Shown in pieces: positions 539 through 26,667 of a DNA stretch of 34,336 nt (positions are counted from its first letter, which is position 1; every line of letters begins with the position of its first letter). Source of the stretch: Solirubrobacterales bacterium (GTDB lineage Bacteria; Actinomycetota; Thermoleophilia; Solirubrobacterales; Solirubrobacteraceae); assembly GCA_019244745.1 (NCBI GenBank), contig JAFASF010000034.1, positions 1 to 34,336 of the forward strand, in the 5' to 3' direction. Made by a program: the position numbers and the translations under genes. The notes under the pieces were generated by a model, which saw only the letters and a list, made by a program, of their open reading frames with translations, was not told where the DNA came from and did not search any database.

Positions 539-2593
539 TTACGAGGCGGAGGCGTTCGGGGCGGCGTTGGTTCCCGCCGGCGCTGCCGCGGCGCTGTTCG
601 ACCCGCCGCCGCCGGCGGCGCCCGCGGACGGGCTCGGGCCGTCTCCGGCCGAGGCGGTAGTGGCGTCGGTGTTGGCGCCGGTCGCGGCTGCGGACGGGCC
701 CGAGCCCGCGCCGTTGCCCGAACTCGTGGTCAAGTCGGGCGCAACGCTCGAACCGGACGGCGTGGCAGCTGTACCAGTGGCGGAGCCGGAGCCCGGGGAG
801 GCAGCCGGCGAGCCCGACGGCGCTGCACCGGTGGGGGAGCTGGAGCCCGGGGAGGCGGGCGTCGTCCTGGCTGTGCCCCCCGGGGTGTTTGTGGATCCCG
901 TTGCCGGGGTCGACGCAGCGGCGCCGTTCGAGCCGGCCGCCGGGTTGCCGGGAGCGCTGGACGCGTCGGATCCGAGCGGGACGGTCGGAGGCAGGTCTGG
1001 CGCTGCGGCCGACGACGGTTTCGCCGCGGCCGGGGAAACCGGGCCCGCGGAGGGATCCGAGCTGGTCGAGGTCGTCTGCGAGGACGCGCAGCTCGACGGG
1101 GTCGGCGCCACCGATCCGGTCGACGCGCCGGCGGCCGAAGAAGCGCACGTTGCTGAGGCGCCGGAGTTCGAGCCGGCGGAGCCCGCGCTGGGCGCGGTGG
1201 TGGATGTCGCCGCGCCCGCGCCCCCCGACTCGGTCGCGGTGGTGCTCGTCTGAGTCGTGCTTGTCGCGACAGAATTGGTAGTCGCGGTCGCGCTCGTCGC
1301 GGCGGAGCTCGGGGTCGCGGCTGCCTTCGCGCCAGATGGCTTGGCCGGCGGCGCCGGGGCCGGTGCGTTCTGGATCACGAACACGCTGGAGGTGATCGCC
1401 GGCGGCGTGGTGGTCAGTGACAGTGCATGGCTCGGAGCGACGACCCCGGTGGCGATTGCGACTGCGGTGACGATCTTCGACACGAGCGCTGTCGGGCTTG
1501 CCCGGGTCAGACCGCCGACAACGGCGAGCATGGTGCCTCCGGCGGTGAGGCCGGTGGCCACGGCGGCAGCCGGCGCGGCTGCAGCCACCCCGATGCCACA
1601 GGCACCTGTTCCGGCGCCGGCGAGGCCCCCGATCGCCCCGGCACTCGCCGCGACCGCGCCTCCGCCTCCGACGGCCGTTCCGCCGGCCACCGCACCGCCA
1701 CCGGCAAGCGCGGCGCCACCGCCGCTCGTGCCCGCCCCCGCGGCGACGATTCCTCCACCGCCCGCGATGCCTCCGCCGCTGGCGATCCCACCGGCGCCGG
1801 CGATCCCACCGCCAGCCGCAATTCCGCTTCCACCCGCGTGCGCCGCTGCGAGCACCCATGGCTTGAGCTCGGCGACCAGCGGGACAGGAAGGATGAGCGC
1901 GAGCGCCGCTCGCTGGCGGTGCACCTGTCTCTCGAAGGCTGCGCAGCTCGGACAGCGGTCGATGTGCGCCCGGGTCATGCTGCGCGGCAGGATCTTGCCC
2001 CGGACCGTCGCCAGCAGCTCCTGGGTCTCGGTGCAGGAACTGGTCCGGGCCCGCTGGCCGCGCAGGAGCGCCTCGCGCGCTTGGAAGATGAGCGCCTTTA
2101 CCTTCTCGCGCCGCACCCCCAGGACCGAAGCGATCTCGGTGTGCGAGTGATCGCCGAGCTCAAACAGGACGAGGGCGGCCCGCTGGTCGTACGGAAGCCG
2201 CCGGATGTCCTCGAGCAGTTCGCGCAGCTGCTCGCGCTGTTGGACCAGGTCCGCCGGCCCATCCGGGCATGACCGATCTTCGACCGGACCATCGACGCAC
2301 ACCGCATCGGGGCGGCCCCGTAGCTCCGATAGGCAACGGTTGCGAGCGATCGTGTACAGCCAGGGGCGCAGCGAGATACCACTGTCCCCACCACGCAACG
2401 CCCGGTACGCGGAGACGAACGTCTGCTGTAAGGCGTCCTCGGCCTCCTCGCGACTTCGAAGCATGTGCACGCAGAATGCGAGCACGCCCCGGGCATATCG
2501 ATCGTAGATCGCTTCGAAGGCACAATCGTCGCCGGCGCGTACCTGCGCAACGAGCTCGTCGTCGGTCAGCCCTAGGAAAAGTCTGCGGTCCAT
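539..2593 (-). CDS. ECF-type RNA polymerase sigma factor with zinc-finger domain and very long low-complexity C-terminal tail
   Basis: Numbering from the upstream ATG at 2680, residues 55-120 form sigma region 2 (AFEAIYDRYARGVLAFC, LRPWLYTIARNRCLSEL) and 150-205 region 4 (RLPYDQRAALVLFELG, HTEIASVLGVRREKVK). Next is an HxxxCxxC zinc-binding motif (H239, C243, C246) as in ZAS anti-sigma factors. A Gly/Ala/Ile-rich stretch of short repeats (about 282-345) and a hydrophobic stretch (about 345-415) follow, then about 290 residues rich in Ala, Ser, Thr, Pro and Gly to the stop. ECF factors are normally near 200 residues. The product could be a membrane-tethered sigma factor with its own inhibitory domain. 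Start is uncertain: ATG at 2593 fits family length, but ATGs at 2632 and 2680 are in frame and none has a clear SD. Confidence 0.85.
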   Translation of the reverse strand: MDRRLFLGLTDDELVAQVRAGDDCAFEAIYDRYARGVLAFCVHMLRSREEAEDALQQTFVSAYRALRGGDSGISLRPWLYTIARNRCLSELRGRPDAVCVDGPVEDRSCPDGPADLVQQREQLRELLEDIRRLPYDQRAALVLFELGDHSHTEIASVLGVRREKVKALIFQAREALLRGQRARTSSCTETQELLATVRGKILPRSMTRAHIDRCPSCAAFERQVHRQRAALALILPVPLVAELKPWVLAAAHAGGSGIAAGGGIAGAGGIASGGGIAGGGGIVAAGAGTSGGGAALAGGGAVAGGTAVGGGGAVAASAGAIGGLAGAGTGACGIGVAAAAPAAAVATGLTAGGTMLAVVGGLTRASPTALVSKIVTAVAIATGVVAPSHALSLTTTPPAITSSVFVIQNAPAPAPPAKPSGAKAAATPSSAATSATATTNSVATSTTQTSTTATESGGAGAATSTTAPSAGSAGSNSGASATCASSAAGASTGSVAPTPSSCASSQTTSTSSDPSAGPVSPAAAKPSSAAAPDLPPTVPLGSDASSAPGNPAAGSNGAAASTPATGSTNTPGGTARTTPASPGSSSPTGAAPSGSPAASPGSGSATGTAATPSGSSVAPDLTTSSGNGAGSGPSAAATGANTDATTASAGDGPSPSAGAAGGGGSNSAAAAPAGTNAAPNASAS

Positions 2594-2693
2594 CGCCGGA
2601 CGGCATCCCACAAGTACGGTGGTTGCCCCCATACGTGCAAAGTATGCGCCTTCATCGCGCCGGGGGTCGAGCTGAGACATTCGAGATCTTGAT

Positions 2694-4285: not shown

Positions 4286-4551
4286 CGCCCGTGGTGCTTG
4301 TGGGCGGCGTAGCGGTCGGCCACGCCGAGGTCGAGGGTGGTTTCGTTGAGCGCAGTCAGACTCGCAGCCGACGTCTCGATGGAGCGCCAAACTTGTGGCG
4401 CTTAGCCAGCGGCAGATCTATCGCAACCGTGGGCGATCTCCTCGAGCTAGCAGGAAGCACCGGGGGCGCGCCGAATCCTCGGGCCGAAGAGCGGTCATAG
4501 CGATGAATGCGGAGCTCGAGAGAGAGGTCGTTTCCTTGTACCCAACGTCTT
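4286..4551 (+). other. Long 5' leader of glpF
   Basis: About 270 bp lie between the promoter-like sequence and the glpF ribosome-binding site. It contains a 7-bp hairpin at 4383-4402 (AGCGCCA, 6-base loop, TGGCGCT). An open frame at 4291-4500 could encode 69 residues but has no recognisable family and no clear SD. I recognise no known riboswitch class. Confidence 0.35.
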
Positions 4552-4564
4552 GGGAGGAGGGCAT

Positions 4565-5557
4565 GTGGCAGTAGCTGATGCATCAGCGCGTCGATTGGGC
4601 TGGCGCGCGGGACTGGGCGGCGAGTTGTGGGCCGAGTTCTTCGGAACGTTCATCCTGATCTGCTTCGGCGATGGCGTGGTGGCGATGCTATGGGCCCTGA
4701 ACGGGTCCGGGCGCTCGATCCCGACCGTCTTCACACCGGCGGCTGGGATCTTCTCTTCGCACGCGCCGCTCCTGGGCAGTGGTGACTGGCTCCTGATCAC
4801 GTTTGGATGGGCGTTCGCGGTCACCTTCGCCATCTACACCGTGGGCGGCGTCACCGGCGCCCACATCAACCCGGCGATCACGTTGGGTGCGGCGATGCGC
4901 AAGGCATTGCCGTGGAACAAGGTCGCGCCCTACTGGGCGGTCCAGGTGGCCGGCGCGTTCGTCGGCGCCGCGCTCGTGTTCCTGGTCTACAACAACGCGA
5001 TCAACCACTTCGACCAGGTGAACCACCTCGTCAAGGGCAGGACGCCACCGGCCATGGGTAACTCACTCGCGACGTACAGTACGTTCGCCACGTTCCCGGC
5101 GCCGTACTTCCACAACGTCTTAGGACCGATAGTGGACCAGGTCGTGGGTACGTTCTTCCTGGCTCTGTTCGTGTTCGCGGTGACCGACGAGCTCGCGCTT
5201 GCACCGGGCTCGAACTTGGGGCCGCTGATCGTCGGGTTTATCGTGCTGGCGATCGGTATCTCGTTCGGCGCGAACGCCGGTTATGCGATCAACCCGGCCC
5301 GTGACTTCGGCCCGCGGTTGTTTGCGTGGATCGCGGGCTGGGGGAGGTTGGCGATGCCTGGCGACTACGGATGGATAAACACCTACTTCTGGGTGCCGAT
5401 CGTCGCACCTCTGATAGGGGCGGCGCTGGCCGTCCCTGCGTACGACATCGGGATGCGGAAGATCCTCATAGCGCGGCAAGCGGCAGCAGAGCCCACACCG
5501 GAACCCGGCGGAGAGGTGCCGCCGACGGCGGGGCCGCCGGGAGGACTGCCGGCGTAG
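4565..5557 (+). CDS. glpF: Glycerol uptake facilitator (aquaglyceroporin, MIP family)
   Basis: The product is an inner-membrane channel for passive glycerol entry, about 330 residues. Both MIP signature loops are present: GAHINPAITLG (NPA at 102-104) and INPARDFGPR (NPA at 243-245). The Asp after the second NPAR (D247) is the usual mark of glycerol-conducting channels rather than strict water channels. Six membrane helices are visible, and the Pro/Gly-rich C-terminus is poorly conserved. The frame is open back to TTG 4550, but GTG at 4565 sits just after a strong GGAGGAGG (4553-4560), so I take GTG, with a short spacing. At about 330 residues it is longer than E. coli GlpF (about 280), mainly through inserted loops. 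The glycerol operon lies on the opposite strand immediately downstream. Confidence 0.92.
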   Translation: MAVADASARRLGWRAGLGGELWAEFFGTFILICFGDGVVAMLWALNGSGRSIPTVFTPAAGIFSSHAPLLGSGDWLLITFGWAFAVTFAIYTVGGVTGAHINPAITLGAAMRKALPWNKVAPYWAVQVAGAFVGAALVFLVYNNAINHFDQVNHLVKGRTPPAMGNSLATYSTFATFPAPYFHNVLGPIVDQVVGTFFLALFVFAVTDELALAPGSNLGPLIVGFIVLAIGISFGANAGYAINPARDFGPRLFAWIAGWGRLAMPGDYGWINTYFWVPIVAPLIGAALAVPAYDIGMRKILIARQAAAEPTPEPGGEVPPTAGPPGGLPA

Positions 5558-5584
5558 ACGCAACCTGGCAAGACACGGGCAACC

Positions 5585-5613
5585 GGGCGGTGGCGCTACT
5601 GGCGCCGCCGCCC
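5585..5613. terminator. Bidirectional hairpin terminator between glpF and pgsA
   Basis: A 12-bp stem (GGGCGGTGGCGC with GCGCCGCCGCCC, one G-T pair) and a 5-base loop lie between the convergent glpF and pgsA stops. There is no T-tract, but position and stability suit a shared terminator. Confidence 0.55.
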
Positions 5614-5675
5614 GCGCTCGTTAACCGGAGGCGGCAGAACGGTGACGTCCCCGGGACACGTCACGAAGACGCGAT

Positions 5676-6254
5676 TCATCCATCGGCGCGCAGAGCAGAG
5701 GAGAAGCGAACGAAATAGTCGACGCCGGACCAGACGGTCACCAGCGCCGCCACGCCGAGCAGCCACTGATCGAGGTATGCGCCGGCGAACGTGACCTCGG
5801 GCCGAAGCATGATGAGCGTGAGGGCGACGAACTGCGCCGTGGCCTTCCACTTGCCGAGCATCGAGGCTTCGAGATGGAGGCCCTGGGCGGCCACGGCGGC
5901 GCGCAAGCCGAGCACGATGAGCTCGCGGCCGATGATCGCCAGCGAGAGCCAGGGGGAGGCGCGCCCGGTCGCGACCAGCGCGATGAGCACGCCGGTGACC
6001 AGCAGCTTGTCGGCCGTCGTGTCGAGAAACGAGCCCAGGCGAGAGCTCACGTTCCAGCGGCGTGCGAGGCGTCCGTCGAACCAATCCGTGCTCGACACCG
6101 CCAGGAAGACGATCGCCGCAGCCGTCCAGGAGTGGCCGAGGATCAGGCCCATCACCACCGGGGTGGCCACGATCCGGATGCTCGTGCCGGCCAGGATCAA
6201 AGCGCCGGCTCGGGTGCTGCCTCTTCTCGCTGGTCTCAGCGCGCCAGCATCCAT
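5676..6254 (-). CDS. pgsA: CDP-alcohol phosphatidyltransferase, probably phosphatidylglycerophosphate synthase
   Basis: This integral membrane enzyme would transfer the phosphatidyl group of CDP-diacylglycerol to glycerol-3-phosphate, the first step to phosphatidylglycerol. The full family signature DX2DGX2ARX8GX3DX3D is present, with D57, D60, G61, A64, R65, G74, D78 and D82. Several hydrophobic helices follow. ATG 6254 is chosen because it lies 7 bp after the dhaM stop; an upstream in-frame start at 6314 would overlap dhaM. It is last in the glycerol operon, where its substrate is produced. Another CDP-alcohol substrate such as inositol phosphate cannot be excluded from sequence alone. Confidence 0.85.
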   Translation of the reverse strand: MDAGALRPARRGSTRAGALILAGTSIRIVATPVVMGLILGHSWTAAAIVFLAVSSTDWFDGRLARRWNVSSRLGSFLDTTADKLLVTGVLIALVATGRASPWLSLAIIGRELIVLGLRAAVAAQGLHLEASMLGKWKATAQFVALTLIMLRPEVTFAGAYLDQWLLGVAALVTVWSGVDYFVRFSSALRADG

Positions 6255-6261
6255 CGTGAAC

Positions 6262-8844
6262 CTATGACAGCAGATCGGCGCCGTACCGGCGGGCCTCAGC
6301 CGAGTCACGAGCATCCAGTGCCCGCCGCGCCGCCTCAGCGGCGCCGGTCAGCGCCACCGACCTCAGCGCTTCCTTGACCTCCGGTATGAGCGGCCGAGCC
6401 ATGCTCAGCTCCCGGACTCCAAGGCCCACAAGGAGGACAGCGGCGGCGGGGTCTCCCGCGAGCTCACCGCACACCCCGACCCAGCGCCCGTGGGCCCGGG
6501 CGCCTTCGACCGTCGCCTGCACGAGGCGCAGGACCGCGGGTTGCGGCCCGGCGAGCAGGGTTCCAACGTGCTCGTTTCCGCGCTCGGCGGCCATCGTGTA
6601 CTGGGTGAGGTCGTTGGTGCCGAGCGAGAAGAAGTCCGCCGAGGCGGCGAGCTGCTCGGCTTGCAGTGCCGCCGAGGGCACCTCGACCATGATCCCGACC
6701 TCGAGCGGCGCATCCACTCCGGTGGCCTCCCGCGCCGAAGCGACCGCGGCCAGCCCCGCCTCGAGCTCGGACGGCGTGGCCACCATCGGGAACATCACCT
6801 TGACCGGATGCTCGGCTGCGACCCGAAGCACGGCGCGCAGCTGAACCGCAAACAGGTCGGGGTGCTCGAGCGAGAGCCGGATTCCGCGCTGGCCCAGGAA
6901 CGGATTCTGCTCGGTCTCCATCGGCAACGCCGGCAGGGGCTTGTCCGCGCCCACGTCGAGCGTGCGCACGATCAAGGGACGGCCGTCGAGTGCCTTTGCG
7001 ATCCGCGTGAGCGTCTCGACCTGCTCCTCCTCGTCGGGAATCTGGGGGCGGTCGAGGAACAGGAACTCGCTCCGCAGCAGGCCGACGCCGTCGGCTCCGA
7101 GCTCGACGGCCGCGGCCGCCTCGTCGGCGGCGCCCAGGTTCGCCGCCACCTCAACCGCAACCCCGTCCCGCGTCACCGCCGGCTCGCCGGCCCGGCGCCT
7201 CGCCGCGGCCCGGCGCTCGGCCGCGATCTCATTCGCCCGCCGAGCGCGCTCGCCCTCCTCCTCGCTCGGAGCGACCAGCACGGTCCCTTCGCCGCCGTCG
7301 ACGAGCACCGGCGTGCCTTCGTCCACCGCCAGTATGGAAGGCCCCAGGCCCACCACCGCCGGGATCCCGAACGCCCGCGCGAGGATCGCCGCGTGCGCGG
7401 TCGCCGTGCCGCGCGCGGCCGCGATCCCGCGAACGAGCTCCGCATCGAGCGAGGCCGCGTCGGCGGGCGTGAGCTCTGAGACGACCAGCACGCCCGCGCC
7501 GCTGACCGTCGCACGCGCCTCGCCTCCGGAGAGTGCCGCCAGCACGCGCCGTCCCACGTCCTCGACGTCCGCCGCCCGCTCCCGCAGAAGCTCGTCGTCG
7601 AGCTCCCTCCAGGCCGCGGCGGTCCCGCGGCTCGCCTCCCCCCACGCGGTCTCCGCCGCCGCCCCCGCTTCGATCCGCTCGCGCGCCGCCTCGGCGAGCG
7701 CGTCGTCGTCGAGCAGCGCTAGATGCGCGGCGAAGATCGCCGCCTCGGTGGCGCTGCTCCGGCGCGCCACGTCGTCGCGATCGTGCTCGATCGCCGTCCT
7801 GGCGGCTGCCCGCGCCGACTCGAGCCGTCCCCACTCGGCCTCGGATCCCTGCGATGGCCGCTCGGCCAGCGGGCCGAGCGGCTCGTCCAGAAGGCGGACC
7901 GGCCCAAGGGCGATCCCCGCGGATGCCGGAAGCCCGTGCAGCACGGTCCCCGGCTCGGGTGTGGCCGGGCGCTCGCCCGGGGTGTCCGAGATTTGCCTCC
8001 CGTACGGCGGCTTATCTCGGACACCCCCCTCAGCTTCGGCGGGGCGATCGGTGGCGCGCGCCGCCTTGTTGGCCTGGGCCGCCGGAGTGAGGGACCCAGC
8101 CGCCGCGTCGCCCGCCACTCCCTCTCCGAATCCCTCGCGCGCGAGATCCTGGAGCGCGGTCAGCGCCTCGTCGGCCTGAGGGCCGCTCGCCGTCGCCACC
8201 AGCTCATCGCCCTTGCGCGCGAGGAGCGTCATCAAGCCGGTCAGGCTGCGTGCGCTCACCGGACCGGCCGCGCCCGCCTTGGCGAGCCGCAGGTCGGCGT
8301 CGTAGCGGCCCGCGAGCTCGACCACCAACGCGGCCGGACGGGCGTGCAGGCCGATCTCGTTGAGCACCGGGATCCGTACCTCGGGTCCGGACGGAGCGTC
8401 GCCGGCGTCCGAAGCGCCCGCGTCCTCCGAGCCGGAGCCCCCGGTCTCGCCAACGAGCTGTGCGACCTTCATCCCGATCGCCTGCCGGGCCTCGGCGCCG
8501 ACTTCGTCCAGCGAGGCGCCACCGCGCGCCGCTGCGGCCGCCGCGACCGCGCCCTCGACCAGCGGCGCCTCGCTCAGCGAAACGCGACCGTCGGATCCCA
8601 GCAGCTCGACCGCCATCTCCGCACTCATCAGCGCGCTGCCCAGATCCATCAGCACGAGCACGCCGTCGTCGCTCATCGCCCGCTCGATCGCAGCGCGCAC
8701 GCGCTCCGCGTCGGTGCCGATCGACCCGTCCTCGAGTCCGCCCGCGGCCTGCACCGAAACCTCCTCGCCTCCCATCTGCCGCGCCAGCTCGACCACGCCC
8801 TCCGCGAGCGCCGCGCTGTGCGAGACGACCACGATCCCGACCAT
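6262..8844 (-). CDS. dhaM: DHA kinase phosphoryl donor DhaM fused to HPr and full-length PTS Enzyme I
   Basis: This 860-residue cytoplasmic protein carries a whole PEP-to-DhaL phosphorelay. Residues 1-135 are the EIIA-mannose-type DhaM domain with active H9 (VVVSHS). Residues 155-240 are HPr with H167 (GLHARPA) and a Ser region SARSLTGLM. After a roughly 60-residue linker, 298-860 is Enzyme I: phospho-His H484 (TATAHAAILAR), PEP-domain motifs (RTLDVGADKPL, FFSLGTNDLTQYTMA) and active C792 (GVCGELAGDP). E. coli DhaM has only a truncated EI part and depends on general PtsI; here EI looks complete. The gene starts 13 bp after glpC. The linker contains an in-frame inverted repeat (7979-8027). It is not a fructose FPr protein, because the first domain is EIIA-Man type. 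Confidence 0.93.
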   Translation of the reverse strand: MVGIVVVSHSAALAEGVVELARQMGGEEVSVQAAGGLEDGSIGTDAERVRAAIERAMSDDGVLVLMDLGSALMSAEMAVELLGSDGRVSLSEAPLVEGAVAAAAAARGGASLDEVGAEARQAIGMKVAQLVGETGGSGSEDAGASDAGDAPSGPEVRIPVLNEIGLHARPAALVVELAGRYDADLRLAKAGAAGPVSARSLTGLMTLLARKGDELVATASGPQADEALTALQDLAREGFGEGVAGDAAAGSLTPAAQANKAARATDRPAEAEGGVRDKPPYGRQISDTPGERPATPEPGTVLHGLPASAGIALGPVRLLDEPLGPLAERPSQGSEAEWGRLESARAAARTAIEHDRDDVARRSSATEAAIFAAHLALLDDDALAEAARERIEAGAAAETAWGEASRGTAAAWRELDDELLRERAADVEDVGRRVLAALSGGEARATVSGAGVLVVSELTPADAASLDAELVRGIAAARGTATAHAAILARAFGIPAVVGLGPSILAVDEGTPVLVDGGEGTVLVAPSEEEGERARRANEIAAERRAAARRRAGEPAVTRDGVAVEVAANLGAADEAAAAVELGADGVGLLRSEFLFLDRPQIPDEEEQVETLTRIAKALDGRPLIVRTLDVGADKPLPALPMETEQNPFLGQRGIRLSLEHPDLFAVQLRAVLRVAAEHPVKVMFPMVATPSELEAGLAAVASAREATGVDAPLEVGIMVEVPSAALQAEQLAASADFFSLGTNDLTQYTMAAERGNEHVGTLLAGPQPAVLRLVQATVEGARAHGRWVGVCGELAGDPAAAVLLVGLGVRELSMARPLIPEVKEALRSVALTGAAEAARRALDARDSAEARRYGADLLS
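7979..8027. repeat. In-frame inverted-repeat element inside the HPr-EI linker of dhaM
   Basis: Perfect 14-bp arms GGGGTGTCCGAGAT / ATCTCGGACACCCC are separated by 21 bases. The element encodes roughly RDKPPYGRQISDTP in the linker and keeps the frame open. The encoded segment differs in composition from the Ala/Gly/Glu-rich linker around it. Confidence 0.6.
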
Positions 8845-8857
8845 GTCCGGCGGTCCC

Positions 8858-10081
8858 CTAGAGCCGGTAGGCCTGGTGCAACAACTCGACGGGGTGCACG
8901 GACCGGCGGTGCGTGCCGTGCTCGATCATCCAGCGGCAGGTCTCGCTGTCGCACGCCACGAGCCCGGCCCCCGACGCCGCAACCTGATTGAACAAATCAG
9001 CCCCGACGTCCATGGCGATCTGGTACTTCTCGCGCTTGAGGCCGTAGGTGCCCGCGATGCCGCAACAGCGAGCGTCGAGCTCGTGGACGACGAGTCCCGG
9101 AATCAACGCCAGCAGGTCGAGCGCCGGCTTGCCGATCCAGTGGCCCTGCTGCTGGCACGGCGCGTGGTAGGCGACGACCTCCTCCACCGGCTGGAAGTCG
9201 GTCTTGAGCTCGCCCCGGTCGTGGAGCTCGAGCAGCAGCTCGCATACGTCGTACGTCTGGCGGCTCACCAGCGCCAGGTCCGGATCGTCCTCGAGGCCCA
9301 GGATCTCTCGCGCCTCGCGCTTGAGCATCACCGTGCAGCTGGTGGCGTTACCGACGATCAGCGTGCCGTCGCGGGCGTGCGGGGCCAACGCACGCGCGAG
9401 CCGGAGCACGTACTTTCGCGCGTCCTCGAACAAGCCGTTGGACTGAAGGGGCAGCCCGCAGCAGTCCTGCTTCGGCACCTCGACGCGGTAGCCGTTGTGC
9501 TCGAGCACCGCGACCACCTTCTCGCCCACGTCGGGCTCGTAGTACTCGGTGCCGCAGTTGTGGAAGTAGACGATCTTGGTGCCGGTGGCCGGGCCCTCGT
9601 GTTTCCGGGCCCAGCCCTGGAACGTGCGGCCGGCGAAGGCCGGGAGCGGCGCGTCGCGATGGATGCCGAGCAGCCGCTCGGTCAGCACCCGCGTCGCCCG
9701 CGCGCGCAAGGCCGCGTTCGCCAGCGGCGCCACGGGCGTGCCCAGCCGGCCGAGCACGGTGGGCCGCGCGATGAGTCGATCGCGCAGCGGTACGCCGCCC
9801 CGTTGCTTGACCGCGTACCGCGCGTGGGCGTTGAGCTCGGCAATCTTCACTCCCTGCGGGCAATGCATCGTGCACAGCCCGCAGCCCGAGCAGTAGTCGA
9901 CCGACCACTCGTCGACCGGCTCGCCCTGTTCGCGGTAGCGCTCCGCCTGCGGACCCGCGTACTTGGGTCCGGGAAACAGCGGCGTGACGTTCGAGACCGG
10001 GCACACGGTCTCGCAGATCGTGCACTTCACGCAGTGATCGAGCGAGTTGCGCAGCGGTTCGTGCAGGAGGTCTTCGATCAT
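8858..10081 (-). CDS. glpC: Glycerol-3-phosphate dehydrogenase Fe-S subunit C
   Basis: GlpC links the GlpAB dehydrogenase to the membrane and passes electrons to quinone. The 407-residue product has two ferredoxin-type [4Fe-4S] motifs (C17, C20, C23, C27 and C64, C67, C70, C74) and two CCG domains: one with QDCCGLPLQSNGLF and one with HAPCQQQGHW and ARCCGIAGTYGLKREKY. The frame runs further upstream, but ATG 10081 overlaps the glpB stop in an ATGA arrangement and places the first Cys cluster at the expected position. It is followed 13 bp later by dhaM. Length and motif order match GlpC of enteric bacteria. Confidence 0.92.
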   Translation of the reverse strand: MIEDLLHEPLRNSLDHCVKCTICETVCPVSNVTPLFPGPKYAGPQAERYREQGEPVDEWSVDYCSGCGLCTMHCPQGVKIAELNAHARYAVKQRGGVPLRDRLIARPTVLGRLGTPVAPLANAALRARATRVLTERLLGIHRDAPLPAFAGRTFQGWARKHEGPATGTKIVYFHNCGTEYYEPDVGEKVVAVLEHNGYRVEVPKQDCCGLPLQSNGLFEDARKYVLRLARALAPHARDGTLIVGNATSCTVMLKREAREILGLEDDPDLALVSRQTYDVCELLLELHDRGELKTDFQPVEEVVAYHAPCQQQGHWIGKPALDLLALIPGLVVHELDARCCGIAGTYGLKREKYQIAMDVGADLFNQVAASGAGLVACDSETCRWMIEHGTHRRSVHPVELLHQAYRL

Positions 10082-11337
10082 GCCGCGGCCGCCGCTCCCT
10101 CCCGTTCCCGCACCGACTGCGCGACGCAGTGCCCGCTCGCGAGCGCGATGCCCTCGCCCGAGCCCTCGCGCCAGGGCACGGCCCCGGGGAGCGCGGCGCC
10201 GGCGACGAACACGTTCTCGGTTCCCTCCGCGAGCAGTCCCGAGTCGACCGCCACTCCCACGTTCGACATGGGCTGCGGGCCGAAGTAGTCGCCGGCGAAG
10301 CGCGGCTCCCCGGGAGCCGGCATCCCGCGCAGCGCCAGACCCACGATGGTCTCGTGCGGCTGCCAATCGGAGCCCAGCGTGATCGCGCCCGAGGCGAAGC
10401 CGCCCGTCGCGAGCACGACCCATCGCGCGCTAAACAAAGTGTCATGGCCGCTGGTGTGCGCTCGCACCGCGGTCACGCGCTCGCCCTCGCGCTCCACGCC
10501 GAGCGCCTCGGCTCCGACGATCAGCCGGCCGCCCGCGGCGCGGAGCGCGGCCACGAGGGCGTTGTACACGCGGATCCCGGGAACCGAGGGCGGGAGGGTC
10601 GGCACTTCGAACACCGGCCCTCCCAGCCGGCGCTGGATGTCGGACCATGCGCCGTGGGGGTCACGGAGGCCCAGGATCGCCGGCATCGCCACCCGCTCTC
10701 CGGGACGCAGCAGCAGCGCCAGCCGACCGGCGAAGGCGGCGCGAAACGCGGGGTCGTCAAAGCGCCGCGCGAGACCCAGCGCGTTGGCCTCGACGCGCCC
10801 CACCTCCACCTCGATCTCCACGGCGCGGGCCTCGATCCCGCCCCGCCGGAGGTTGCCGGCGCACAAGGAGGCATAGAAGTCCCTCAGCACCGGCAGGCCG
10901 ACCACGCACACCGGGGCGTTCGTGTCGCCGGCGGCCATCGTCTCGGGGACGAGCGCGGAGGGGCGAAGCGCGCCGACGGCCGTGGGGAGGAAGTGGTTTC
11001 GCTCGAGGCCTCCCGTGTATCTATATCCGGGCTGAGGTCCGGCCTCGACGCGGTCCGCGAACCACTCCAGCGCCGGCGCGACTGCGTCCGCGCCGAACAG
11101 CGCGTAGGGGTGATCCGGATGGGCGGCAATGAAGCCGGGCAGCGCGTCCGCCGGTTTCTCTACGCGCTCGGGGTCGTACCCGAGCACGCCGATGGTCCCG
11201 GGAGCCAGGTGCGTGGAGCCGACCCCCTTGGCGAGCACGCACACGCGGGCACCGCCCTCGGCCAGCCGAGCCGCGGCGGTGAGGCCGGCCACGCCGGCGC
11301 CGAGGACCACCGCGTCATAGTGAAGCGTTGGGCTCAT
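10078..11337 (-). CDS. glpB: Anaerobic-type glycerol-3-phosphate dehydrogenase subunit B
   Basis: The 419-residue flavoprotein (the same length as E. coli GlpB) begins with a dinucleotide-binding fold, YDAVVLGAGVAGLTAAARLAEGG, followed by LAKGVGSTHLAPGTIGVLGY, characteristic of GlpB. The C-terminal part contains WVVLATGGFASGAITLGSDW and a second flavin-contact region ENVFVAGAALPG. Its ATG overlaps the glpA stop (ATGA) and its stop overlaps the glpC start (ATGA), so the three subunits are translationally coupled. The frame continues upstream to 11646, inside glpA; that extension is rejected. Confidence 0.9.
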   Translation of the reverse strand: MSPTLHYDAVVLGAGVAGLTAAARLAEGGARVCVLAKGVGSTHLAPGTIGVLGYDPERVEKPADALPGFIAAHPDHPYALFGADAVAPALEWFADRVEAGPQPGYRYTGGLERNHFLPTAVGALRPSALVPETMAAGDTNAPVCVVGLPVLRDFYASLCAGNLRRGGIEARAVEIEVEVGRVEANALGLARRFDDPAFRAAFAGRLALLLRPGERVAMPAILGLRDPHGAWSDIQRRLGGPVFEVPTLPPSVPGIRVYNALVAALRAAGGRLIVGAEALGVEREGERVTAVRAHTSGHDTLFSARWVVLATGGFASGAITLGSDWQPHETIVGLALRGMPAPGEPRFAGDYFGPQPMSNVGVAVDSGLLAEGTENVFVAGAALPGAVPWREGSGEGIALASGHCVAQSVREREGAAAAA

Positions 11338-12893
11338 GGCAGATGCTCGATGTCGAGCACGCCCTGGAAGATCCAGTCGTCGAGCCTGGCCTGGCGGAGC
11401 TGATCGCCGTAGAGAATCGGCCACACGCCCTTCCAGCGCTCCAGGACGTAGTCGACCAGCGCCCGGTTGGCCTGCGAGGTGTCGATGCCGTCGTGTCCGT
11501 GGAGGATTCCCGCGGCCCGGTAGATGCAGAACCCTCCCTGGCAGGGGCCCATCCCCAGCCGGAGCAGTCGCCGGACGTCGTCGAGGTCGGTGGTGCCTCG
11601 CTGCCGGATGGTGTCCTCGATCCGCCGTCGCGGGATCAGCTCGCATTCGCAGATCAGTTGGTCGTCGCGCAAGTGGCGCTCTCGCCGGCCCAGCCGATCC
11701 TCAACCCTTATGTACTCGCCGTCGTGTGAGCCAGGAAGCCGCTCGGTCGCGGTTGTGCACGGTCGCGGATCGCCGAGCTGGCGGCACACCGCGTCGACGG
11801 TGTCCTGCGCCATCAGCCGGTAGGTGGTCAGCTTGCCGCCGGTGATCGTAAAGAAGCCGCTTACCCCGTCGCGATCCATGTGGTCCAGCAGCGCGTGGGC
11901 GCGGGTGACGTCACGCGAGGAGCCGCCGTCGCCGTTGCCCTTGGTGTCCTCGAACAGCGGACGCACACCGGTCCACACGCGAAGCGCGCGCGCGTCCTTG
12001 AACCCGGGCACCAGGCGCTCGCCATAGGCGAGCATCGCGTCGACCTCGTCCTGGATCACCGAGTGATCGTCCGGATCCTCGGTGTCGACGTCGGTCGTAC
12101 CCACCACGCAGACGGTGCGGATCGGGACGATGATGTCGCCGTCGGTCGGCATCTGGCATCGGTTGACCACGGTGTTGACCAGGCGGTGGTTCATCGCGAT
12201 CATGATCCCCCGGCCCGGGCGGACCTGGACGCCCTCGATTCCGGCCAGACCGGCGATCTTGCCGGCCCAGGCACCGGACGCGCTGACCGTGATCCGAGCT
12301 TCTACGTCGAGCTCGTCTCCGGTGCGCGAGTTACGCACGCGCGCACCCTTGATCTCGTCGCCGTCGCGGTGCACGGCCACGGCTTCGTGGTAGGGCAATA
12401 CGCGCGCGCCGCGCTCCTGGGCTCCGCGCGCAAGCGCCCACACGAGCCTCCAGACGTCGATGCTGGCATCCGGGACGCGGAAGGCGCGGGAGACCCGCGG
12501 GTTCAGCCTCGGTTCCTCGCGCAGCGCCTGCGCCGGCTCGATCTCCTCGCATGGCACACCGGTGTTGCGGCATCCCAGGGCGAACCGATCGGCGTAGGCG
12601 GGATCGTCGAACGGGGTGGTGACAAAGAAGCCGCCGGTGTCCTCGATGGCGTCGGGCGCGATGTGCCGGACGATGAGGTTCTCGCGCGCGCATTCGTCGG
12701 CCGCCGATGGGTCCTTGACGGCGTAGCGGCCGCCGGAGTGCAGCAGGCCGTGGAAGCGCCCGCTCGTTCCGGTGCCGAGATCGCCCCGCTCGACGAGCAC
12801 CACGTCGAGCCCGCGCAGCGCCGCGTCCCAGGCCACCCCCGCGCCGGTCGCACCCCCGCCGATCACCAGGACGTCGGTGCTGAGCTTTTCCAC
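11334..12893 (-). CDS. glpA: Anaerobic-type glycerol-3-phosphate dehydrogenase catalytic subunit A
   Basis: This FAD enzyme oxidises glycerol-3-phosphate to dihydroxyacetone phosphate. The 519-residue product shows the FAD motif GGGATGAG (12-19), the DAO-fold sequence GRFHGLLHSGGRYAVKDP, the substrate region RVWTGVRPLFEDT, and GFFTITGGKLTTYRLMAQ. A C-terminal BFD-like [2Fe-2S] domain has C415, C417, C451 and C456 (CEC and GPCQGGFC), which separates GlpA from the single-subunit GlpD. The start is GTG, with AGGAG 12 bases upstream, somewhat far. The gene lies 85 bp after glpK, with a hairpin in the gap, and overlaps glpB by 4 bp. Confidence 0.93.
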   Translation of the reverse strand: MEKLSTDVLVIGGGATGAGVAWDAALRGLDVVLVERGDLGTGTSGRFHGLLHSGGRYAVKDPSAADECARENLIVRHIAPDAIEDTGGFFVTTPFDDPAYADRFALGCRNTGVPCEEIEPAQALREEPRLNPRVSRAFRVPDASIDVWRLVWALARGAQERGARVLPYHEAVAVHRDGDEIKGARVRNSRTGDELDVEARITVSASGAWAGKIAGLAGIEGVQVRPGRGIMIAMNHRLVNTVVNRCQMPTDGDIIVPIRTVCVVGTTDVDTEDPDDHSVIQDEVDAMLAYGERLVPGFKDARALRVWTGVRPLFEDTKGNGDGGSSRDVTRAHALLDHMDRDGVSGFFTITGGKLTTYRLMAQDTVDAVCRQLGDPRPCTTATERLPGSHDGEYIRVEDRLGRRERHLRDDQLICECELIPRRRIEDTIRQRGTTDLDDVRRLLRLGMGPCQGGFCIYRAAGILHGHDGIDTSQANRALVDYVLERWKGVWPILYGDQLRQARLDDWIFQGVLDIEHLP

Positions 12894-12925
12894 GGCGTGA
12901 GCTTACTCCTGCAACGGCGATGCCG

Positions 12926-12960
12926 CCGGAGCGCCGGCTTGGCGATTGCCGGCGCCCCGG
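12926..12960 (-). terminator. Intra-operon hairpin between glpK and glpA
   Basis: A stem of 13 bp with one mismatch (core GCGCCGGC / GCCGGCGC, 9-base loop) fills most of the 85-bp gap. It could attenuate transcription, mark an RNA-processing point or stabilise upstream dhaKL-glpK mRNA; no T-tract follows. Confidence 0.4.
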
Positions 12961-12978
12961 AACGACGGCGTCGGCGTC

Positions 12979-14478
12979 CTACTCCAGCCAGTCGAACGTC
13001 CGCTCGACCGCCTTCTTCCAGTAGCGGTAGAGGTTTTCGCGGTCGGATTCGTCCATCTTCGGCTCCCACCGCTTGTCCTCGACCCAGTTCTCCCGGAGCT
13101 CGTCCTCGGTGTTCCAGAACTCGGTCGCGAGTCCCGCGGCATAGGCCGCGCCGAGCGCGGTCGTCTCGGCCACCTTCGGCCGGATCACGGGCACGCCCAG
13201 GATGTCGGCCTGGAACTGCATCAGGAGCTCGTTGACGACCATCCCGCCGTCGACCTTGAGCGACTCGAGATGCACGCCCGAGTCGGCTTCCATCGCGTCC
13301 GCGACCTCGCGGCTCTGGAACGCGGTGGCCTCGAGCGCGGCACGGGCGATGTGCCCGTTGTTGACGAAGCGCGTCAGCCCCGCGAACACGCCGCGAGCGT
13401 TGCCCTTCCAGTAGGGCGCGAACAGGCCGGAGAACGCCGGCACGATGTAACAGCCGCCGTTGTTCTCGACGGTCTTCGCGAGCTCCTCGACCTCCGGCGA
13501 GGTCTTGATCATCTTGAGGTTGTCGCGCAGCCACTGCACGAGCGCGCCGGTGATCGCGATCGAGCCCTCGAGGCAGTAGACGGCCTTCTGGTCACCGATC
13601 TTGTAGCCGACGGTCGTGATCAGCCCGTTCTTGGACTGGACCGCCTCGTTGCCCGTGTTGAGCAGGAGGAAGTTGCCGGTCCCGTAGGTGTTCTTCGCCT
13701 CGCCGACCGAGAACGCGGTCTGACCGAACGTCGCCGCCTGCTGGTCACCGAGGTCGCCCGCGACCTGGATCCCGTTGAAGGCGCCGTTCTTGATCTCCCC
13801 GTAGGGATCGGCCGACGGGCGGATCTCGGGCAGCACCGAGCGCGGGACTCCGATCGCGCTCAGCAGCTCATCGTCCCAATCGAGCGTCTCGAGGTTCATC
13901 AACATCGTGCGGCTCGCGTTCGACACGTCCGTGATGTGCAACCCGCCGTTGGTGCCGCCGGTGAGGTTCCAGATGCACCAGGTGTCGATGTTGCCGAAGC
14001 AAAGCTCGCCGGCCTCCGCCCGGTCCCGCGCGCCGTCGACGTTCTCGAGGACCCAGCGGACCTTGGGACCCGAGAAGTAGGTGGCGATCGGGAGCCCGTT
14101 CTTGGCCCGGAAGCGATCCTGCCCGCCGTCCTTCTCGAGCTCGGCACAGATCTTGTCCGTGCGCGTGTCCTGCCAGACGATCGCGTTGTAGACCGGGTCG
14201 CCGGTGTTGCGGTCCCACACCACGGTCGTCTCCCGCTGGTTCGTGATACCGACCGCGGCCACGTTGCCCGCTCCGCCCTCGACCTTGCCGGCGGCGGCAT
14301 CCATCACCTCCTGCGAGCGCTGCCAGATCTCCTTGGGATCGTGCTCGACCCACCCGGGCTGGGGGTAGATCTGCTCGTGCTCGCGCTGGTCGACTGCCAC
14401 GACGTTGCCGCCGTGGTCGAAGATCATGCACCGCGTGCTGGTTGTGCCCTGATCCAGTGCTGCGACGTAATCAGCCAT
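12979..14478 (-). CDS. glpK: Glycerol kinase, operon copy
   Basis: This cytoplasmic ATP-dependent kinase makes glycerol-3-phosphate. The 499-residue length is standard. FGGY-family features include [15 protein letters not shown] at the N-terminus, [12 protein letters not shown] and [14 protein letters not shown] for glycerol binding, [10 protein letters not shown] and [15 protein letters not shown] for ATP, and [20 protein letters not shown] near the C-terminus. The segment that carries the PTS-phosphorylated His in Firmicutes GlpK (HFYG before the VPIAG-type motif) reads [10 protein letters not shown] here, so that control is absent. A strong AAAGGAG Shine-Dalgarno precedes ATG 14478. A vestigial copy of the dhaL end lies just upstream of the SD. 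Confidence 0.95.
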
Positions 14479-25452: not shown

Positions 25453-26667
25453 TCACGCTTCCGGCACCGGCCCCCAGGACATTCCCCCCGGTGTGGCATT
25501 CGGCTCGCCTTGCACGGGAGACGGACCCCGAGCTCCGGGAGGCTGGCCGAACAGCTCGGCATGATTGATTGCGCGCCTCACATCGGAAGGGGTGAGGATG
25601 CCCACGATCCTCGCGCCCTCGACGACAACCGCTCGCCGATCAGGTGAGCCCTGCATCCGCACCGCAACCTGGGCCAGATTGTCGTTGGGACCGCACTGGA
25701 CGATCTCCGTGGGCCGGGCCGCGGCGGCGCCGACCGGGGTGGTGTGCCAGCGGTCGCGCGGGAGGCTTGCCATCCGCGTCACTGTGACCAGTCCGACCAG
25801 TCGGCGGTGTATGTCCACGACCGGGAACGAGGAGAATCGGTTCGGCCTGACATATCGCTCGATCACCTCGTCCACGGTCGCCTCGGTCGGCACCACGAGC
25901 GGGGCGCCCGTCATCGCGTCGGCGACGCGGAGGTCTCCCTCGCGGGATCGGTGGGCCACCTGCTGGTGCTGTTGGCCGGCGGCGACCGTGATGAACCAGC
26001 CGATCACGGCCAACCAGATACCTCCGAGCGCGCCGCCGGCGAGGAACTCAAGCGCGCCCACGGCGATGAGCCCGATGCCGCAAACCTTTCCGACTCTGGC
26101 GGCCACGGCCGTGGCGCGGATGCGGTCGTGCCAGTGCCGCCACAGCAGTGCTCGCAGGATCCTCCCGCCGTCCAATGGGAAAGCGGGCAGCATGTTGAAC
26201 AGCGCCAGCAGAGCGTTGATTCCGGCCAGCCAGGCGAGCGAACTCACCAGCAGAGCGCTCGTGCCGACGGCGCCCAGCACCACCGCCGCCAGCCCGCCAA
26301 CCGCGGCAAGTCCGAGGCTGGTAAGAGGACCTGCGCCGACGATCTCAAGCTCGGCGCGCGGATCGGGGCTATCGCCCTCTAGCTTGGCCACTCCGCCGAA
26401 GATCCACAGCACGATGCCCTTGACTCTGACCCCGCGCCGGCGAGCGACCAGGGCATGGGCGAGCTCGTGAGCCAGGAGGCTCGCGTAGAAGGCAGCGGCG
26501 GTCACGAGGGCAAAGACCCAATAGGCGGACGTCGTGTAACCAGGCGCCGCGGAGGGGAGCAGCGTGCCCGCGAGGCTCAGCGCGATCAGCAGAAAGATCG
26601 GCAGAAGGCTCCAGTTGATTCCGACGCGGACTCCGCGAATCTCGCCAAGGTGGAAGCTCTCGTTCAT
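25453..26667 (-). CDS. Site-2 protease-type M50 membrane peptidase with CBS-domain pair
   Basis: The 404-residue intramembrane zinc metalloprotease has the catalytic HELAH motif (H67, E68, H71) in a membrane helix and the third zinc ligand in FPLDGGRIL (D166). About six hydrophobic helices span residues 15-235. Two CBS repeats follow (about 245-310, VADAMTGAPLVVPTEATVDE and FPVVDIHRRLVGLVTVTRM; and about 315-375, AVVVEGARIVGILTPSDVRRAI), which normally bind adenine nucleotides and could gate the protease. A Pro/Gly-rich tail ends the protein. Its substrate is unknown; site-2 proteases often cleave membrane-bound anti-sigma factors. Confidence 0.92.
   Translation of the reverse strand: MNESFHLGEIRGVRVGINWSLLPIFLLIALSLAGTLLPSAAPGYTTSAYWVFALVTAAAFYASLLAHELAHALVARRRGVRVKGIVLWIFGGVAKLEGDSPDPRAELEIVGAGPLTSLGLAAVGGLAAVVLGAVGTSALLVSSLAWLAGINALLALFNMLPAFPLDGGRILRALLWRHWHDRIRATAVAARVGKVCGIGLIAVGALEFLAGGALGGIWLAVIGWFITVAAGQQHQQVAHRSREGDLRVADAMTGAPLVVPTEATVDEVIERYVRPNRFSSFPVVDIHRRLVGLVTVTRMASLPRDRWHTTPVGAAAARPTEIVQCGPNDNLAQVAVRMQGSPDRRAVVVEGARIVGILTPSDVRRAINHAELFGQPPGARGPSPVQGEPNATPGGMSWGPVPEA

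What the first reader, a model, noticed from the sequence alone, without database searches (positions are those of the whole stretch)
539..2593. ECF sigma factor fused to a zinc finger, a hydrophobic segment and a roughly 290-residue Ala/Ser/Thr/Pro tail
The sequence shows sigma regions 2 and 4, then an HxxxCxxC motif typical of zinc anti-sigma factors, then Gly/Ala repeats, a hydrophobic stretch and a long low-complexity tail. If the hydrophobic part spans the membrane, the tail would be outside, giving a one-protein sensor that holds its own sigma factor at the membrane. A site-2 protease is encoded 23 kb away, but no link is shown.
Basis: partly seen in the sequence, partly recalled or inferred. 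Interest (0 to 1): 0.65.

Follow-up and report, generated by a model that had tools for sequence, protein, structure and literature searches.

The report
Sigma factor with built-in membrane inhibitor
A soil-type actinobacterium makes a gene-switching protein (a sigma factor) that carries its own zinc-finger inhibitor, a probable weak membrane anchor and a long floppy tail in one chain; the layout is already known from other actinobacteria, but this branch has no recognisable sensor domain and I found no earlier description of it.

Summary
It encodes sigma regions 2 and 4, a zinc anti-sigma-like domain with four invariant ligands (C187, H210, C214, C217), a Gly/Ala linker, a hydrophobic segment (aa 368-386) and a 298-residue Ser/Thr/Ala/Pro tail. 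No frameshift is seen; homologues with the same layout occur throughout Solirubrobacterales. AlphaFold with the extension places sigma-2 and sigma-4 as in anti-sigma-bound SigW-RsiW and CnrH-CnrY; without it that arrangement is lost. The tail is probably outside: of 143 full-length homologues, 117 have a basic residue at the segment's N-edge and 2 an acidic one, and 13 of the 14 tails with cysteine hold exactly two. But the segment is only weakly hydrophobic, unlike the clear helices of Streptomyces ECF52, so membrane insertion is likely, not proven. The kind is known (ECF48/52/53: sigma fused to anti-sigma, proposed to be freed by proteolysis). This is a separate Thermoleophilia clade without a recognisable sensor domain. 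The site-2 protease 23 kb away is one of at least five M50 proteins in the genome, with no shown link.

The parts
539..2632 (-). whole gene, 697 aa from the conserved ATG at 2630-2632 (684 aa from the ATG at 2593)
   Evidence: open frame; conserved in-frame ATG in close relatives
2315..2509 (-). sigma region 2 (aa 29-93 of the 684-aa numbering)
   Evidence: Pfam PF04542 E 4.2e-15; AlphaFold pLDDT mostly above 90
2066..2224 (-). sigma region 4 (aa 124-176)
   Evidence: Pfam PF08281 E 7.8e-11; AlphaFold pLDDT above 90
1835..2035 (-). zinc anti-sigma-like domain plus following helix (aa 187-253); ligands C187, H210, C214, C217
   Evidence: four ligands invariant; profile's best PDB hit is RsiW, E 0.066, weak; zf-HC2 matches 9 of 13 relatives below cut-off; four helices in AlphaFold
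1493..1834 (-). Gly/Ala-rich, almost charge-free linker (aa 254-367)
   Evidence: translation; predicted disordered; 0.64 charged residues per 100 aa across family linkers
1436..1492 (-). hydrophobic segment, candidate weak transmembrane helix (aa 368-386, TALVSKIVTAVAIATGVVA)
   Evidence: Kyte-Doolittle 1.87; isolated helix in AlphaFold, pLDDT about 59; insertion score about +2 to +3
539..1435 (-). 298-residue low-complexity Ser/Thr/Ala/Pro/Gly tail (aa 387-684) with two cysteines, C483 and C502
   Evidence: translation, composition, cysteine pair
2641..2670 (-). promoter-like block (TCGACC-N18-CATACT) 8 bases before the conserved ATG; would give a leaderless transcript
   Evidence: partly conserved in the upstream alignment; inference only

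Best explanation
A self-contained ECF sigma factor that is held inactive by its own C-terminal zinc anti-sigma domain and anchored by a weak single-pass helix, with the sigma part inside and the disordered Ser/Thr/Ala/Pro tail outside in the cell wall. Envelope stress or damage to the tail would allow cleavage outside and then inside the membrane; trimming of the released piece would free the sigma domain for RNA polymerase. Shown here: sequence anatomy, conservation, absence of a partner gene. Predicted here: the inhibitor-bound fold. Inferred: membrane insertion, outside tail, proteolytic release, signal.
For: Zinc ligands invariant in all aligned homologues. AlphaFold with the extension matches whole sigma chains from anti-sigma complexes (SigW-RsiW 5wuq TM 0.78-0.79; CnrH-CnrY 4cxf TM 0.83, rmsd 2.9), while RNA-polymerase-bound sigmas match at 0.30-0.44. 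The same protein cut before the zinc domain falls to 0.50-0.51 against both. No conserved neighbour of the gene across eight relatives' loci, apart from two close genomes that share synteny with each other, so no separate anti-sigma. Basic residue at the N-edge of the segment in 117/143, acidic in 2/143; acidic at the C-edge in 115/143, against a linker with 0.64 charges per 100 aa. Tail cysteines: 0 in 129, exactly 2 in 13, 1 in one of 143; random placement gives about 22 odd tails and never under 11 in 20,000 trials; the sigma part shows no such parity. VKOR, the actinobacterial disulfide enzyme, is found in 34 of 41 genomes of the group. Streptomyces ECF52 relatives share sigma, zinc motif, Gly/Ala linker, helix and Pro-rich stalk, with an NPCBM domain at the end. 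M50 proteases are present.
Against: Many relatives have strongly basic tails, net charge up to +40, unusual for an exported stretch. Cysteine pairs occur in only 13 of 143 tails; the 14 cysteine-bearing proteins form seven groups at 70% identity, so independent cases are few, and two related proteins have a pair in the linker instead. VKOR was not found in this genome, 91% complete. AlphaFold was probably trained on the anti-sigma complexes it resembles. No signal or target genes known.
Confidence: 0.6

Rival explanations
1. A soluble self-inhibited sigma factor: the zinc domain inhibits it and responds to oxidation or zinc loss inside the cell, and the weak hydrophobic segment and tail stay in the cytoplasm, acting in assembly, partner binding or turnover.
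For: Weak insertion score across the clade; basic tails in many relatives; C-H-C-C ligand set as in redox-responsive zinc anti-sigma factors (family knowledge).
Against: Paired tail cysteines; K at the N-edge and D/E at the C-edge is the reverse of what soluble helices favour and fits N-inside insertion; related fused proteins have clear helices and outside-type domains.
Confidence: 0.22
2. Proteolysis is not the switch: the protein is membrane-held but activated by a conformational change of the zinc domain, for example by metal loss, with the tail only as a wall anchor.
For: Invariant zinc site; no linked protease found; the proposal for ECF52 cited in PMC5826349 allows conformational change as well as proteolysis.
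Against: The membrane-held fused sigma IutY is released by proteolysis (PMC8999054); a tethered sigma would have limited access to the chromosome.
Confidence: 0.1
3. The extension is degenerate and the sigma factor is controlled mainly by its own transcription.
For: Tail sequence is not conserved between orthologues at 74% sigma identity; promoter-like block upstream.
Against: Zinc ligands and the following helix are under strong constraint; a long tail is kept, median 193 aa.
Confidence: 0.05
4. The tail is an annotation artefact caused by a frameshift.
For: Antisense and other-frame open frames exist because GC is high; one relative (L061) does look frameshifted after the zinc domain.
Against: Same layout in 143 full-length homologues; steady codon usage.
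Confidence: 0.02

Closest known systems
ECF52 sigma factors (SCO4117 of Streptomyces coelicolor; PMC5826349)
   Same: Order of parts: sigma 2, sigma 4, zinc finger, Gly/Ala linker (seen in the Streptomyces-type relatives fetched here), membrane segment, Pro-rich or low-complexity stalk; single fused chain.
   Different: ECF52 ends in a carbohydrate-binding NPCBM domain (E 1.8e-29 in L219) and has a clearer helix (-0.3 to +0.7). The window protein has no such domain, a weaker helix, and lies in another clade.
ECF48 and ECF53 sigma factors of Actinobacteria (PMC8999054)
   Same: C-terminal fusion to a zinc anti-sigma domain and one to two membrane helices, extensions up to 400 residues, proposed activation by proteolysis.
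   Different: Group models were not available, so membership is untested. The mycobacterial relatives found here (possibly ECF48) form a separate clade with strong helices.
SigW-RsiW of Bacillus subtilis (two-protein sigma/anti-sigma pair)
   Same: Predicted sigma arrangement (TM 0.78-0.79); the zinc-domain profile's best PDB sequence hit is RsiW (E 0.066).
   Different: RsiW is a separate protein; here inhibitor and sigma are one chain.
IutY of Pseudomonas putida (ECF243; PMC8999054)
   Same: Sigma fused to a membrane-bound anti-sigma and freed by proteolysis (Prc, RseP).
   Different: Works in iron-siderophore cell-surface signalling of a Gram-negative; not described there as a zinc-finger fusion.

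Membership tests
ECF (group IV) sigma-70 factors | Regions 2 and 4 only, short linker | tested here: met
   Pfam r2 and r4_2 above cut-off; TIGR02937 above cut-off, 76 vs 42.9 bits; two helical domains
Zinc anti-sigma (ZAS) domain | HxxxCxxC plus an upstream Cys/His ligand | tested here: met
   C187, H210, C214, C217 invariant
Zinc anti-sigma (ZAS) domain | Match to a curated zinc anti-sigma family model | tested here: inconclusive
   zf-HC2 only below cut-off in 9 of 13 members; RsiW best PDB profile hit at E 0.066
Zinc anti-sigma (ZAS) domain | Inhibits the sigma factor | not testable with these tools
   only the predicted inhibitor-bound arrangement
ECF52 | C-terminal carbohydrate-binding module | tested here: not met
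   no family in the tail; NPCBM is found in the Streptomyces-type control L219
ECF52 | Phylogenetic placement with Streptomyces ECF52 | tested here: not met
   separate Thermoleophilia clade, though deep branches are weak
ECF48/ECF53 | Match to the group's own model in the ECF classification | not testable with these tools
   the ECF group models are not among the libraries
Membrane-held sigma/anti-sigma fusions | A transmembrane helix between zinc domain and tail | tested here: inconclusive
   hydrophobic segment with N-edge basic residue, but weak insertion score
Membrane-held sigma/anti-sigma fusions | Release by regulated proteolysis | not testable with these tools
   proteases present in the genome; no link shown

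The most novel reading that the evidence does not exclude
Solirubrobacterales use a family of one-protein envelope sensors without a folded sensor domain: the disordered, possibly glycosylated wall-spanning tail is itself the sensing element, and an unusually weak membrane helix is tuned so that tail damage or loss readily triggers release of the sigma factor.
Probability: 0.18. Interest if true: 0.65.

Novelty: new variant of a known kind. Interest (0 to 1): 0.42.

Why it matters
If right, a whole order of soil actinobacteria carries such sigma factors, three in this genome alone, each a complete signalling pathway in one polypeptide. The family lacks a recognisable sensor domain, which makes it a simple test case for how a disordered extracellular tail can control an anti-sigma switch, and for what intramembrane proteases require of a marginal helix. 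Otherwise it extends the ECF48/52/53 design to Thermoleophilia.

Tried and rejected
Partner by synteny: across eight relatives' loci the sigma gene has no shared neighbour except between two close genomes. Protease link: the M50 protein at 25453-26667 is one of at least five M50 proteins and carries CBS domains. Known domain in the tail: none; a second scan of the tail was accidentally out of frame and is not used; the fourth protein was typed with one wrong letter and is not used. O-mannosylation of the tail: weak PMT-family hits exist in the genome, but the same model also rings in E. coli and B. subtilis, so this stays a guess. Promoter: the conserved upstream block looks like a -35/-10 pair leading to a leaderless transcript, but it is less well kept in the window itself and could not be tied to autoregulation. 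Earlier description of this Thermoleophilia family: literature searches found none, but the library lacks most subscription papers and the ECF group models.

Full report
What is there. The window holds one long open frame on the minus strand, 539-2593, 684 aa. In the aligned upstream DNA of five relatives an in-frame ATG stands at the place of the window's ATG 2630-2632, so 697 aa is the likelier product. Pfam finds sigma region 2 and region 4 above cut-off and nothing above cut-off in the remaining 500 residues; NCBIfam's general ECF model is also above cut-off. After region 4 comes C187-x22-H210-x3-C214-x2-C217. All four are invariant among 18 close and 26 more distant proteins, including one from Mycolicibacterium and one from a Chloroflexi genome. 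A Gly/Ala linker, a hydrophobic 19-mer at aa 368-386 and a 298-residue tail of 86% S/T/P/A/G follow. Position-3 GC stays high throughout, so the frame does not break.

Who has it. The window is from a draft genome of 463 contigs, in a genus that also holds G011, whose single contig has the length of Conexibacter sp. S30A1 (L077). Named close relatives are nearly all Solirubrobacterales/Thermoleophilia. The 30 best relatives all have HxxxCxxC. I then collected 90 and finally 143 non-identical full-length homologues by sigma similarity plus the zinc motif; apart from L061, which looks frameshifted after the zinc domain and drops out of the later count, all have a tail. This genome has three such proteins: the window one, L031 and L032. 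Its other ECF factors have different extensions or none. A tree puts the Solirubrobacterales proteins in three subfamilies within one larger clade (support 94), separate from Streptomyces ECF52 and from a mycobacterial and other-actinobacterial group of fused sigmas; the deep branches are weak.

How the front half probably works. AlphaFold on residues 1-419 (697-aa numbering) gives confident sigma-2, sigma-4 and zinc domains, the last as three helices plus a fourth, then a disordered linker and an isolated helix at 380-394. Foldseek against the PDB matches whole sigma chains taken from anti-sigma complexes (SigW-RsiW TM 0.78-0.79, CnrH-CnrY 0.83), while RNA-polymerase-bound sigmas match only at 0.30-0.44. 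As a control I folded the sigma part alone with the same set of sequences: the match to the same two complexes falls to 0.50-0.51. So in the model the extension sets the inhibited arrangement. This is a prediction, and those complexes were probably in AlphaFold's training data. No separate anti-sigma gene or shared neighbour accompanies the gene.

Is the tail outside? For: a Lys or Arg lies at the N-edge of the segment in 117 of 143 proteins and an acidic residue in 2, although the linker has only 0.64 charged residues per 100; acidic residues lie at the C-edge in 115. That is positive-inside polarity, and the reverse of what soluble helices favour. Tails have no cysteine in 129 cases, exactly two in 13 and one in 1; placing the same 27 cysteines at random gives about 22 odd tails and never fewer than 11. 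The sigma part shows no such parity. Even cysteine numbers are common in exported mycobacterial proteins and are read as a sign of disulfides (PMC12421883). VKOR is found in 34 of 41 genomes of the group, though not in this assembly. In the other fused proteins every chain with cysteine after the helix has two as well. Relatives in the same class score 1.1 to 2.5; fused proteins outside the class score -2.4 to +0.7, save one (L230, 2.2). Some relatives have very basic tails. The 14 cysteine-bearing proteins form seven groups at 70% identity, so the parity rests on few independent cases. I rate an outside tail at about 70%.

Compared with what is known. ECF48, ECF52 and ECF53 are described as sigma factors with C-terminal fused zinc anti-sigma domains, one to two membrane helices and extensions up to 400 residues, expected to be activated by proteolysis (PMC8999054). 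SCO4117 (ECF52) adds a Pro-rich stalk and a carbohydrate-binding domain (PMC5826349). The Streptomyces-type relatives fetched here show the NPCBM domain and the same kind of Gly/Ala linker. The window protein shares the design but lacks any recognisable sensor domain, has a weaker helix and belongs to another clade. Membership in ECF52 fails on the sensor domain and placement; ECF48/53 membership could not be tested. It works like these groups; whether it already has an ECF group number is open.

The protease. The M50 protein at 25453-26667 has CBS domains. The genome has at least five M50 loci, one of which (C84) has a cytidylyltransferase-family gene beside it, as RseP/Rip1 genes usually do (family knowledge). 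Nothing ties the window copy to this sigma factor.

Verdict. The kind is already known; the lineage and the tail without a sensor domain make it a variant worth a topology experiment.

Noticed in passing
window 2641-2670, minus strand: Promoter-like block partly conserved in close orthologues (about TGGACT-N17-CATACT) that ends a few bases before the conserved ATG, suggesting a leaderless transcript.
   Followed up: partly
window 4550-14478: Glycerol/dihydroxyacetone gene cluster: GlpF-like channel, an 860-aa EIIA-Man/HPr/EI fusion (DhaM-like) at 6262-8844, an iron-sulfur CCG protein at 8858-10423, GlpD-like and GlpK-like proteins (GlpF, GlpD and GlpK named from sequence only).
   Followed up: partly
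window 25453-26667, minus strand: M50 site-2-protease-like protein with two CBS domains; at least five M50 loci in the genome.
   Followed up: partly
L225, L226, L227, L229, L231, L236, L238: Fused actinobacterial sigma-zinc-helix proteins whose C-terminal regions carry exactly two cysteines; an Ig-like/BACON domain was confirmed by Pfam in L226 only.
   Followed up: partly
L145 (protein positions 296, 302) and L158 (292, 299): Two related homologues carry a cysteine pair in the Gly/Ala linker rather than in the tail, which the simple topology does not explain.
   Followed up: no
own genome, L035, L037, L039, L041, L049: Several other ECF sigma factors with SnoaL-like C-terminal extensions (ECF41-like), judged by sequence only.
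   Followed up: no
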